Shown piece after piece: positions 7,936 to 10,064 of a DNA stretch of 64,000 bases (position 1 is its first letter; the number at the start of each line of letters is the position of its first letter). The DNA lies in contig NZ_CP036276.1 in the NCBI RefSeq assembly GCF_007747995.1, positions 6,314,001 through 6,378,000 of the forward strand, read 5' to 3'. The translations under genes were made by a program, and so were the position numbers. Source of the DNA: Symmachiella dynata (lineage in GTDB: Bacteria > Planctomycetota > Planctomycetia > Planctomycetales > Planctomycetaceae). The notes under the pieces were generated by a model that did not search any database, was not told the origin of the DNA, and worked only from the letters and a program-made list of their open reading frames with translations.

Positions 7936-8030
7936 CTAGGACCAGTTTCAAAACCCGGTTGCGCTTGTTCTAGAAACGTTCAGAACAGTGTCAATGTGAC
8001 GCGTCAGAGGGTTTTGAAACGACTTGTAGG
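7936..8030 (-). repeat. Dispersed ~92-bp palindromic element, copy 2
   Basis: Reverse-oriented copy: AGTTTCAAAACCC at 7944 and GGGTTTTGAAAC ending at 8020, with GCGCTTGTTCTAGAA and TGACGCGTCAGAGG inside. It ends only 45 bp before the start codon of the cysteine-rich precursor gene and must lie in, or next to, its 5' untranslated region or promoter. Confidence 0.9.
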
Positions 8031-8074: not shown

Positions 8075-8554
8075 ATGAAACCATCGGAATTGAACCGCAG
8101 AGATTTCAGTAAGTTCACCGTCGCCGCGTTTGGTGGCATGGTGGCTGGGACAGCCATTGGTTGCGGCGGCAGCGAAGAGGCAGCGCCCAGCGGTAGCCAA
8201 ACCGGCAGCCAAACCAGCAGCACAGAAACTCCCGAAACCGGGACGGAAGTCGCTGCATCAGAAAAACATGTCTGCCGCGGGTTGAACACCTGTAAAGGCA
8301 AAGGAGCCGACGGTAAAAACGACTGCGCCGGGCAAGGCACGTGCGCTACAGCCAAAGCACATACCTGTCACACGCAAAATGCATGCAAGAACCAAGGCGG
8401 ATGCGGTGAGACGGCTGGCAAAAATGCCTGCGAAGGCAAAGGCGAATGCGCTGTCCCGTTGATGGACGGCACTTGGGAAAAAGTTCGCACGGCATTCGAA
8501 GCAGAACGCAAAGCTGCCGGTGAGCCGGTTGGTGCGGCACCAGCTAAAGGTTGA
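8075..8554 (+). CDS. Tat-exported cysteine-rich bufferin-like RiPP precursor
   Basis: 159 residues from the ATG at 8075, preceded by AGGTGAGGA; the reading frame's earlier GTG at 8063 overlaps that ribosome site. The N-terminus has a twin-arginine motif (NRRDFSKF, R8-R9), a hydrophobic stretch and a possible lipobox ending at C30. A Ser/Thr/Gly/Glu linker follows, then a core (residues 65-127) with nine cysteines at 67, 73, 84, 90, 98, 104, 110, 119 and 125. They fall into repeated C-x5-C units with GKNDC- and GKNAC-type contexts, as in bufferin precursors. The next gene is a DUF692/MNIO enzyme, the maturase family for such peptides. Known bufferins are copper-binding; that role here is inference. 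Confidence 0.8.
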   Translation: MKPSELNRRDFSKFTVAAFGGMVAGTAIGCGGSEEAAPSGSQTGSQTSSTETPETGTEVAASEKHVCRGLNTCKGKGADGKNDCAGQGTCATAKAHTCHTQNACKNQGGCGETAGKNACEGKGECAVPLMDGTWEKVRTAFEAERKAAGEPVGAAPAKG

Positions 8555-8576
8555 TGGATCGGAGATTCAACGTGCG

Positions 8577-8645
8577 GCCCCCCGGCGAAGTCGGGGGCTG
8601 ACGGATTAGCACGCCGCGCAACCGCTGTATTGCGGTTGCTCGGCG
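8577..8645 (+). promoter_or_regulatory. Two strong hairpins between precursor and MNIO gene
   Basis: Between the precursor stop and the enzyme start lie two stem-loops: CCCCCG/CGGGGG at 8579-8597 and a longer one at 8612-8645 built from CGCCG, GCAACCGC, a TGTATT loop, GCGGTTGC and CGGCG. The second is followed by TTGATTTTTGG. They could act as an attenuator or as a 3'-end stabiliser, letting precursor be made in excess of the modifying enzyme. Confidence 0.6.
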
Positions 8646-8664
8646 TTGATTTTTGGAGAGCATG

Positions 8665-9603
8665 ATGAGCAGTCCGCGGCTGGGATATCCGAACCTCGGT
8701 TTTGGTGTGGGACTGCGGGCGGTACATTATCCCTACATTCTCAAACATCACCCCGACGTGGATTGGTTTGAGATCATCTCCGAGAATTACATCGACTCAC
8801 AAGGCCGACCGCGGTACGTCCTCGATCAAATTGCCGAACGCTATCCGCTGGTGATGCACGGCGTCTCATTGTCGATCGGCAGCACCGATCCGGTCGATTT
8901 CGAATATCTGGCCAAACTCAAACGACTCGCGGCCGAAATCAATGCCGTGTGGATCTCGGACCATCTGTGCTGGACCGGTGTCGCCGGGCAAAATGCCCAC
9001 GACCTGTTGCCGATTCCGCTCAACGAGGAAACGTTGGCGCACGTCACCGAGCGGATTCGCATCGTGCAGGATGTGCTTGAGCGGCCGATCGTGTTGGAAA
9101 ATCCCAGCACCTACGTCACCTTTGCCGCCTCAACGATCAGCGAATGGGAATTCCTCACGCGCATGGCGGAAGAAACCGATTGTGGTCTGCTACTTGATGT
9201 GAACAACATCTACGTTTCCTGCTACAACCACGATTTGGATCCGCGGGAATACCTGCAGGCAGTTCCGCATGACCGCGTTGTCCAGTTTCATCTGGCCGGC
9301 CACACGAATTGCGGCACGCACATCATCGACACGCACGACGGTCATGTGATTGACTCCGTGTGGGAACTGTACCGCGAGGCACACCAACTGACCGGCGGGA
9401 GTTCGACGCTGCTGGAATGGGACGCCAACATCCCGGAATTCCCAATCCTGCACGCCGAGGTCCTCAAAGCACAACGGTTCATGGGCAAGGCGGAAGTCGC
9501 GACAGAACCCGCGGACCTGCCCGATGAGGCGCCGTGGGAGACATCCTCCCAGGCGGCTGCCGTGCCACACCCGCTCTCGTTCATCAATGCGGACGTGGAA
9601 TAA
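8665..9603 (+). CDS. DUF692 multinuclear non-heme iron oxidative enzyme (MNIO), bufferin-maturase-like
   Basis: About 312 residues from the ATG at 8665, with GGAG six bases before it; ATG 8662 is the alternative. The TIM-barrel MNIO family binds two or three irons and oxidises cysteines in peptide precursors. The expected ligand-bearing motifs are all present: H65 (MHGVSLS), D99-H100 (SDHLCW), E145-N146 (LENPSTY), D178 (LLDVNN), H209 and H213 (FHLAGH), D222 and H224 (IDTHDGH), and E251 (LLEWD). The first fifteen residues match the [10 protein letters not shown] family signature. It follows the cysteine-rich precursor on the same strand, which is its probable substrate. No DUF2063 partner (BufC type) is nearby. 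The last 40 residues are a variable tail. Confidence 0.93.
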
Positions 9604-9615
9604 CCAACCGCAGCA

Positions 9616-9655
9616 ATAAAAAAACCAACCCGCCGCGGTCAGCAACGGGTTGGTG
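9616..9655 (-). terminator. Rho-independent terminator for the cytochrome gene
   Basis: Stem ACCAACCCG / CGGGTTGGT followed, on the minus strand, by a run of seven T. It lies between the convergent MNIO and cytochrome genes. Confidence 0.8.
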
Positions 9656-9689: not shown

Positions 9690-10064
9690 TTAAGCAGGCT
9701 TGTGGGCTTTGTGACAAGCACCACAGTTCGTCACCTTTTTTAAGGCGTCGACATTCTCGGGATCATCCGCCGCGTCGGCTGCCGCCACGACCAAACGGGA
9801 TGTCAGGATTTTCCAATCCTTTTGGCTCCCTTTCGGCGCGTCGTTCTGGGCCATGGCGATGTACAATTCGACCAACTGGTCACGCTCTTCATCGCTGGCA
9901 GTCTTGCCCACGACTTTCTTGATGAGACCCGACTTGTGAGCATCCTTCATCACCTCTTTGGTGGAATGCTTGGCCACCGGCTTATCATCGTCGGCCGCGG
10001 TGGCCACGGTGATCAAACCGGCAACAATCATCGTCGTACTCAGTAACGCAAAGACTTTACTCAT
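9690..10064 (-). CDS. Small secreted monoheme cytochrome c-like protein
   Basis: 124 residues from the ATG at 10064, which has GGGAGAG upstream. Residues 1-23 are a signal peptide ending in ATA. The mature protein is helical and charged and carries one heme-binding C114-G-A-C117-H118 motif only seven residues from the C-terminus. A heme site near the C-terminus of a helix bundle is the layout of class II (c'-like) cytochromes. The role is likely electron transfer or gas binding in the periplasm. It is convergent with the MNIO gene; any functional tie is unproven. Extra codons upstream of 10064 are not coding. Confidence 0.75.
   Translation of the reverse strand: MSKVFALLSTTMIVAGLITVATAADDDKPVAKHSTKEVMKDAHKSGLIKKVVGKTASDEERDQLVELYIAMAQNDAPKGSQKDWKILTSRLVVAAADAADDPENVDALKKVTNCGACHKAHKPA

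What the first reader, a model, noticed from the sequence alone, without database searches (positions are those of the whole stretch)
8075..9603. Two-gene bufferin-like RiPP module with a Tat/lipoprotein-type precursor and no DUF2063 partner
The precursor has nine core cysteines in repeated C-x5-C units (67-73, 84-90, 98-104-110, 119-125) and GKNDC/GKNAC contexts, and is followed by a complete DUF692/MNIO enzyme. Characterised bufferin loci normally add a DUF2063 (BufC-type) protein and use a Sec signal; here the precursor has an RR motif and possible lipobox cysteine C30, and no DUF2063 gene is within the window. This suggests a variant that is folded or modified before Tat export and may be lipid-anchored. 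Copper binding is inference from the family.
Basis: partly seen in the sequence, partly recalled or inferred. Interest (0 to 1): 0.8.

Follow-up and report, generated by a model that had tools for sequence, protein, structure and literature searches.

The report
Tat-exported copper-peptide system with split genes
A planctomycete carries a small cysteine-rich peptide, probably a copper sponge chemically finished inside the cell, that bears a signal for the folded-protein export route instead of the usual one, and whose helper gene, which seemed to be missing, sits far away in the genome.

Summary
In detail: window 8075-8554 encodes a 159-aa Cys-rich precursor (RR at 8-9, lipobox-like C30, nine core Cys in C-x5-C spacing) and 8665-9603 a complete MNIO/DUF692 enzyme above NCBIfam's bufferin-maturase cut-off. 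"No DUF2063 partner" is true only of the window: the 7.8-Mb genome has one MNIO, one such precursor and one DUF2063 protein (with an RRE-like end) 1.4 Mb away. Of 150 same-family genomes searched, 74 hold all three genes, 5 hold some, 71 none; DUF2063 lies beside the MNIO in 61 of the 74. So this is a three-gene system whose operon is split in this genus, not a two-gene module.

The Tat point stands and is widespread: 84 of 85 precursor ORFs in the family and 79 of 80 (partly overlapping) named loci carry the motif; 0 of 12 proteobacterial Buf2 controls do. Tat-type loci usually keep DUF2063, so Tat does not replace the partner. Best reading: a divergent Buf2/captophorin-type copper peptide, modified in the cytoplasm by MNIO plus trans-encoded partner, then Tat-exported and probably lipid-anchored. 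Modification, copper binding and Tat dependence are inferred. The papers searched showed no Tat signal on an MNIO substrate. New variant of a known kind.

The parts
8075..8554 (+). Precursor gene (A), 159 aa: Tat-type signal, linker, nine-Cys core, conserved C-terminal helix
   Evidence: family model hit E 1e-63; NCBIfam BufA2 model 20.3 bits, cut-off 60
8075..8164 (+). N-terminal signal MKPSELNRRDFSKF...AIGC: twin arginine at residues 8-9, lipobox-like end at C30
   Evidence: RR motif in 84 of 85 ORFs; lipobox pattern in 69 of those 84; TatC and LspA in the genome. By motif only; no signal-peptide predictor was run
8273..8449 (+). Core, residues 67-125, nine Cys; no confident structure predicted
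   Evidence: (block pLDDT 35-45 over residues 41-120)
8465..8515 (+). Conserved C-terminal helix, residues 131-147 (W-x3-R-x3-E)
   Evidence: motif in 81 of 85 family ORFs, shuffled tails mean 1.4; in the phylum-wide set 10 of 11 rows L271-L281 and 5 of 25 rows from L282 on
8610..8654 (+). Stem-loop 8610-8647 then T5 (8650-8654) between precursor and MNIO: possible leaky terminator or mRNA 3' stabiliser
   Evidence: 8555-8664: -55.2 kcal/mol, z -4.4. Terminator-like hairpins in 19 of 43 linked spacers against 8 of 129 shuffles (this one is not among the 19, apparently because the spacer ended before the T run). The plain scan did not list it and its total, 5, is near the shuffle mean of 2.9
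8665..9603 (+). MNIO enzyme (B), 312 aa, bufferin-maturase type, with EWD-A254 where proteobacterial BufB2 controls have ERD-D or ERD-G
7941..8030 (+). 90-bp palindromic dispersed repeat, 44 bp upstream of the precursor ATG; absent at the same place in the closest relative G066. Context, not part of the system
   Evidence: 41 matches listed in the genome; 40 of 133 first-look candidates scored

Best explanation
A three-gene RiPP system (A precursor, B MNIO, C DUF2063/RRE partner) of the broad bufferin/captophorin kind. Proposed working: A is made in the cytoplasm; C, encoded 1.4 Mb away, binds A and presents it to B; B oxidises core cysteines (by analogy, to 5-thiooxazoles); the modified precursor leaves by the Tat route, is cut before C30 by LspA and stays lipid-anchored in the envelope, where it sequesters Cu(I). 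Shown here: gene identities, conservation, genome-level co-occurrence, operon splitting, conserved twin-arginine motif and mostly lipobox, homology to Buf2. Inferred: that this C serves this B, cysteine modification, Tat dependence, lipidation, copper function.
For: B passes the NCBIfam bufferin-maturase cut-off, 365 against 310 bits. A is homologous to Buf2: hhalign probability 97.7, E 2.3e-12 against 11 proteobacterial Buf2; 37 of 42 members match the BufA2 model at E <= 0.01. Own C: DUF2063 E 2e-18, HvfC maturation-protein model over residues 59-287 though below its cut-off, confident model, mean pLDDT 90.7. Co-occurrence in 150 family genomes: 74 ABC, 1 AB, 2 A only, 2 C only, 71 none; of the 66 better genomes with any, 64 ABC. 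None of the 16 genomes that have only other MNIO types has C. Copy numbers agree 2+2+2 in G025, G032, G039. Detached C genes branch among linked ones. Tat motif in 84 of 85 family ORFs and at 79 of 80 named loci, 0 of 12 proteobacterial Buf2.
Against: The BufA2 cut-off is not met. The residue beside B's catalytic Asp is Ala, not the Asp or Gly of BufB2 controls, so chemistry or cysteine choice may differ. No copper gene was identified nearby; flanking ORFs were clustered and only four were named by Pfam. Two better-quality genomes break the rule: G129 (A alone) and G019 (A and a truncated B, no C). Copy numbers disagree in G012, G022, G044, G074 (extra A) and G030 (extra B fragment and C). 22 of the 80 named loci have neither B nor C, and 7 have B without C, in the stretch held. 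Agreement of B and C trees is also expected from plain vertical descent. Signal type rests on motifs.
Confidence: 0.7

Rival explanations
1. A true two-gene, partner-independent module: B works alone on A and the distant DUF2063 protein does something else.
For: DUF2063 is not linked here; a partner-free MNIO, DybH, is documented (PMC12636315, passages).
Against: C is present with A and B in 74 genomes and adjacent to B in 61 of them; 1 genome has A and B without C, 2 have C without B (drafts 78% and 66% complete); C is kept after several detachments. The genome has no second MNIO for C to serve. [quoted passage not shown]
Confidence: 0.08
2. The Cys-rich protein is not modified: it is a Tat-exported thiol metal-storage protein, working like the Csp copper stores, and the MNIO acts on something else.
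For: Cys-rich copper stores with a Tat signal exist (Csp1, gonococcal Csp; PMC12510493, passages). In 22 of 74 genomes A is not linked to B.
Against: A and B are linked in 52 of 74 genomes and both present in 75 of the 79 with any of the genes. A is homologous to Buf2, an MNIO substrate family. The core is not predicted as a four-helix bundle (low-confidence model).
Confidence: 0.12
3. A modified RiPP for something other than copper: another soft metal, or oxidative or sulphur stress.
For: No copper gene identified nearby (little was annotated); gold induction and MerC fusions are discussed for other bufferins (PMC12452194).
Against: Characterised MNIO-PME1 products generally bind Cu (PMC12668002).
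Confidence: 0.2

Closest known systems
Buf2 / BufA2 bufferins (BUF_6/12Cys; Cys-Lys captophorins)
   Same: C-x-G-x-N-x-C-K core homologous; same MNIO class; DUF2063 partner in the genome; A-B-C linked in 47 of 74 related genomes
   Different: Twin-arginine motif instead of a Sec signal; nine core Cys rather than 6 or 12; C-terminal W-x3-R-x3-E helix; Ala instead of Asp/Gly beside the catalytic Asp of the MNIO; partner gene detached; below the BufA2 cut-off
Six-Cys DUF692/DUF2063 clusters of Antarctic soil bacteria (PMC8692599, passages)
   Same: Small Cys-rich gene, DUF692, DUF2063 in a row, proposed as metal chelators
   Different: About 80-aa precursors, almost exclusively proteobacterial; no Tat mention in the text
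Lipidated MNIO products (DAG-RiPPs: DybA, NedA; predicted lipoprotein Buf2)
   Same: Lipobox Cys after the signal; membrane anchoring after modification
   Different: Described with SPII lipoprotein signals; the word Tat does not occur in PMC12636315
Csp1-type copper storage proteins
   Same: Tat signal on a Cys-rich envelope protein
   Different: Four-helix bundles with Cys-lined tube; this core has no confident fold and goes with an MNIO
Methanobactin (MbnB) and TglH-type MNIO
   Same: P0002 aligns with solved MbnB and TglH-type chains
   Different: Distant MNIO; signal-less precursors and other partner types (PMC12452194)

Membership tests
Bufferin-type MNIO (BufB) | NCBIfam NF050167 at or above 310 bits | tested here: met
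   365.4 bits
BufA2 / Buf2 precursor | NCBIfam NF050166 at or above 60 bits | tested here: not met
   20.3 bits; yet profile-profile E 2.3e-12
BufA2 / Buf2 precursor | 6 conserved Cys (90% of cases) or 12 (PMC12452194) | tested here: not met
   Nine core Cys
BufA2 / Buf2 precursor | Sec-type signal peptide | tested here: not met
   RR motif here and in 84 of 85 related ORFs; by motif, no predictor run
MNIO-PME1 (captophorin-type) system | MNIO, PME type 1 (DUF2063 plus RRE) and Cys-rich precursor together | tested here: met
   All three in the genome, C unlinked here, linked to B in 61 of 74. DUF2063 above cut-off; the RRE part only by sub-threshold NGO1945_C and HvfC matches and the model
Captophorin | 5-thiooxazole on Cys (-4 Da each, about 305 nm absorbance) | not testable with these tools
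   Needs expression and mass spectrometry
Captophorin | Cu binding / copper-stress role | not testable with these tools
   No direct evidence in sequence
Cys-Lys MNIO (BufB2) | Asp beside the catalytic Asp (PMC12668002) | tested here: not met
   Ala254. Of 83 family rows, 5 other-type MNIO and 2 truncated left out: Ala in 74 of 76. Controls, 14: 9 D, 3 G, 1 A, 1 T; the 12 Buf2 loci are the 9 D and 3 G. In 32 phylum-wide rows: A 20, D 9, E 2, gap 1, with both A and D beside Tat-type precursors
DAG-RiPP (lipidated RiPP) | Lipobox Cys and lipidated product | tested here: inconclusive
   Motif AIGC30 present, LspA present; lipidation not testable
Tat substrate | Twin-arginine motif, hydrophobic stretch, Tat machinery in the genome | tested here: met
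   NRRDFSKF then hydrophobic run; TatC E 3.6e-63. Consensus recalled; transport not tested
Csp copper storage protein | Four-helix bundle lined with Cys | tested here: inconclusive
   Model shows helices only at 8-19 and 131-147, but mean pLDDT is 47; no Pfam match

The most novel reading that the evidence does not exclude
A Tat-dependent class of modified copper peptides: because Tat passes folded cargo, the precursor can be modified and even loaded with cytosolic Cu(I) before export, so each molecule leaves as a folded, metal-filled, lipid-anchored carrier, and Tat acts as the checkpoint that holds back unmodified precursor. That would be a disposable Cu(I) export route and an answer to how MNIO substrates avoid premature export.
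Probability: 0.15. Interest if true: 0.85.

Novelty: new variant of a known kind. Interest (0 to 1): 0.58.

Why it matters
Published work notes that Sec-signal MNIO substrates need some way to avoid export before modification and speculates that the DUF2063 partner masks the signal (PMC12452194 Discussion). A lineage that has a Tat-type signal on homologous substrates, yet keeps DUF2063, lets one test that idea: masking should be unnecessary here, while substrate recognition is still needed. The split operons are also a caution for genome mining: local absence of DUF2063 does not mean a partner-free MNIO.

Tried and rejected
Rejected: partner-free module (DUF2063 found elsewhere in the genome and co-occurring). 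Rejected: link between Tat and loss of DUF2063 (Tat 24 rows with and 4 without DUF2063, non-Tat 6 with and 2 without; 36 rows in the loci L271-L306, several of them of the family itself, most with only 1.5 kb of flank; the non-Tat rows L291 and L297 have short or cut N-termini). This replaces the tally, whose pattern mis-cut several rows. Rejected: the upstream inverted repeat as a regulatory site of this operon; it is a dispersed repeat, absent from the nearest relative. Conserved neighbours: beyond A, B, C and reading frames antisense to A, the widest clusters reached 6 genera (a DUF547 protein; a DUF1501 protein) and 4 genera (a YHS-domain protein, 25 members), against 29 for C. The plain promoter/terminator scan gave nothing on the + strand. 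The precursor model had low confidence.

Biases and dropped rows: the core model was trained on precursors that I had filtered for an RR motif, with the signal cut off; unlinked precursors were found with an alignment that includes the signal. The named-genome scan used a core-only pattern, but hits were confirmed and ranked with the whole protein, and only the best 80 of 334 were kept; these overlap with the family genomes (some contigs have the same lengths). Four partial A rows (G030, G089, G125, G140) were not entered. B was taken as MNIO of 344 bits or more plus truncated ones in G019 and G041 and a fragment in G030; G041's C match is below the Pfam cut-off. 'Linked' means under 3 kb. One search corrects the better-genome count, spoilt by a scripting slip. 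G041 and G072 (counted as split) and G019 may be assembly breaks. In one search, two ORFs other than the precursor (L309, L362) showed an RR; two of the 12 Buf2 controls have identical precursors; 14 of the 40 listed plasmid hits (354 records) were fetched. One search missed the helix motif in L283 because of a late Cys; one search corrects it. One search's pattern missed 35 enzymes; one search replaces it. The output was cut in the middle.

Full report
What is there. The window lies at C1:6314001-6378000 of a 7.77-Mb single-contig genome whose nearest named relatives are planctomycetes. At 8075-8554 is a 159-aa protein: MKPSELNRRDFSKF..., a hydrophobic run ending AIGC30, a Ser/Thr/Glu-rich linker, nine cysteines at 67, 73, 84, 90, 98, 104, 110, 119 and 125, and a C-terminal stretch with a predicted helix. 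At 8665-9603 is a complete MNIO enzyme: PF05114 E 9.4e-110, BufB NF050167 365.4 bits, cut-off 310; it aligns with solved DUF692, TglH-type and MbnB chains.

Is it real? A model from 42 precursors finds the protein in 77 of 150 same-family genomes. A pattern scan of the named genome collection gave 334 relatives, of which the best 80 were kept; by record title these are Planctomycetota and Verrucomicrobiota, apart from three labelled only 'bacterium'. In the alignment R8, R9, F11 and six of nine core cysteines are invariant, the other three at least 90%.

The missing partner. The genome has one MNIO match and one DUF2063 match, 1.4 Mb apart. The DUF2063 protein is 292-298 aa by start chosen, with DUF2063 (E 2e-18) and a sub-threshold NGO1945_C match, a sub-threshold HvfC maturation-protein match over residues 59-287, and a confident model (mean pLDDT 90.7, 22 sequences).

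In the 150 family genomes, taking as B the MNIO of at least 344 bits plus truncated ones in G019 and G041 and a fragment in G030: 74 have A, B and C; 1 A and B; 2 A only; 2 C only; 71 none. Among genomes at least 90% complete and at most 5% contaminated, 64 of the 66 with any have all three; the exceptions are G019 (B cut by a contig end, no C) and G129 (A only). None of the 16 genomes with only other MNIO types has C. Arrangement in the 74: A-B-C linked 47, A apart from B-C 14, all three apart 8, A-B with C apart 5. The window's genome and the two others of its genus are of the last kind; G041 and G072 may be assembly breaks. Copy numbers agree in G025, G032 and G039 but not in G012, G022, G030, G044 and G074. 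In two of the genus's genomes C has the same neighbours on both sides and in the third a shared one, suggesting one ancestral move. Detached C genes lie among linked ones in the C tree; distances in B and C trees correlate, r 0.78 over 64 of the 74 genomes (single-copy, long enough) and 0.94 over the 12 with unlinked C, as expected from vertical descent after relocation. In the named set 51 of 80 loci have both B and C in the stretch held, 7 B only, 22 neither. So the parts scatter repeatedly but stay together in the genome.

The signal. 84 of 85 precursor ORFs in the family have RR-x-F/L plus a hydrophobic run; the exception has its frame cut by a stop. 69 of the 84 also fit a lipobox pattern; the other 15 mostly end AxA-like, one (G134) has NLGC and one (G095) was cut by the script. 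In the named set 79 of 80 loci have at least one Tat-type precursor. Of 14 proteobacterial plasmid loci read as controls, 12 have a Buf2 precursor and none of these has the motif; the other two have a DUF2282 precursor and a large protein. TatC and LspA are present in the genome. Elsewhere in the phylum Buf2-like precursors come with and without the RR motif, and DUF2063 is near both: 24 of 28 Tat-type and 6 of 8 non-Tat rows. Tat therefore does not stand in for the partner.

What it is related to. Profile comparison with 11 Buf2 precursors: probability 97.7, E 2.3e-12 over the C-x-G-x-N-x-C-K core. 37 of 42 members match the BufA2 model at E <= 0.01, best 4e-9; this protein scores 20.3 against a cut-off of 60. 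Two further features mark the family: a W-x3-R-x3-E C-terminal helix in 81 of 85 ORFs (shuffled tails mean 1.4), seen in only 5 of 25 rows from the more distant planctomycete loci, and an enzyme with EWD-A where the 12 Buf2 controls have ERD-D or ERD-G: Ala in 74 of 76 full-length bufB-type rows. In the wider phylum that site is A in 20, D in 9 and E in 2 of 32 rows, and does not follow the signal type. The corresponding site affects which residues around the Cys are accepted in FonB (PMC12668002), so Ala may fit the mixed residues after the nine cysteines here (R, K, A, A, H, K, G, E, A). The most similar plasmid enzyme, of Pseudoalteromonas (59% identical), also has EWDA, and a large protein upstream of it carries a similar CKxxNxCKxQGGC...GGCAVP stretch.

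How it probably works. By analogy with MNIO-PME1 systems, where all characterised cases install 5-thiooxazoles and the products generally bind Cu (PMC12668002), C presents A to B and core cysteines are oxidised in the cytoplasm. A then leaves by Tat and is probably lipid-anchored. Every step after gene identity is inference.

In print. PMC12452194: abstract, Results parts 1-3 of 4 and Discussion read; it describes most precursors with Sec signals and about 16% of Buf2 as predicted lipoproteins; 'Tat', 'twin-arginine' and 'Planctomyc' do not occur in its main text. PMC12668002: abstract and Results and Discussion read; 'Tat' and 'Planctomyc' do not occur. PMC12636315: passages; shows lipidated MNIO products; 'Tat' does not occur. 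PMC8692599 and PMC12510493: passages. Searches for MNIO with twin-arginine, MNIO with planctomycetes, bufferin with Tat signal (8 of 12 papers listed; 'bufferin' also matches 'buffering'), Tat pathway with RiPP, and planctomycetes with DUF692 showed nothing on a Tat signal of an MNIO substrate in their listings. The held library lacks most subscription papers.

Expression details. Between A and B is a strong stem-loop followed by T5; terminator-like hairpins occur in 19 of 43 linked spacers against 8 of 129 shuffled ones, which would fit more precursor than enzyme being made. The 90 bp upstream of A is a dispersed palindromic repeat, absent in G066.

Verdict. A genuine, conserved, three-gene copper-peptide-like system with a Tat-type signal and a split operon: a new variant of a known kind. 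The two-gene reading is an effect of the window.

Noticed in passing
window 7941-8030 and 676-763; 41 matches listed genome-wide: A dispersed 90-bp palindromic (MITE- or REP-like) repeat with arms GTTTCAAAACCC/GGGTTTTGAAAC; one copy sits just upstream of the precursor and is absent from the orthologous site in G066.
   Followed up: partly
L355 (Pseudoalteromonas piscicida plasmid) 3-1427: A large protein (475 aa as cut by the locus) with a similar CKxxNxCKxQGGC...GGCAVP stretch lies upstream of the plasmid MNIO most similar to the window's: possibly a protein-sized MNIO substrate.
   Followed up: partly
L137 (G066), L138, L139, L140: More distant MNIOs in the family lie near membrane proteins with Gly/Cys-rich tails (GGCGGGCGG...), resembling the TIGR04222 proteins described in PMC12452194 (not tested with that model); no DUF2063 match in these stretches.
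   Followed up: no
window 9690-10064, - strand: Small protein with a signal-like start and a single C-x-x-C-H (NCGACHKAHKPA) next to the MNIO, with a terminator-like hairpin at 9624-9654 between them; no Pfam hit.
   Followed up: no
L129, L134, L230, L233, L257, L258, L268: Two precursor genes near one MNIO, suggesting one enzyme with several substrates.
   Followed up: no
L195, L251, L260: Precursor gene downstream of the MNIO, or precursor copies on both sides of it, against the usual A-B-C order.
   Followed up: no
L064 5832-6767 (+) and 7946-8959 (-), with relatives in other loci: A DUF547 protein (6 genera) and a YHS-domain protein (4 genera, 25 members) recur near the system in some relatives.
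   Followed up: no
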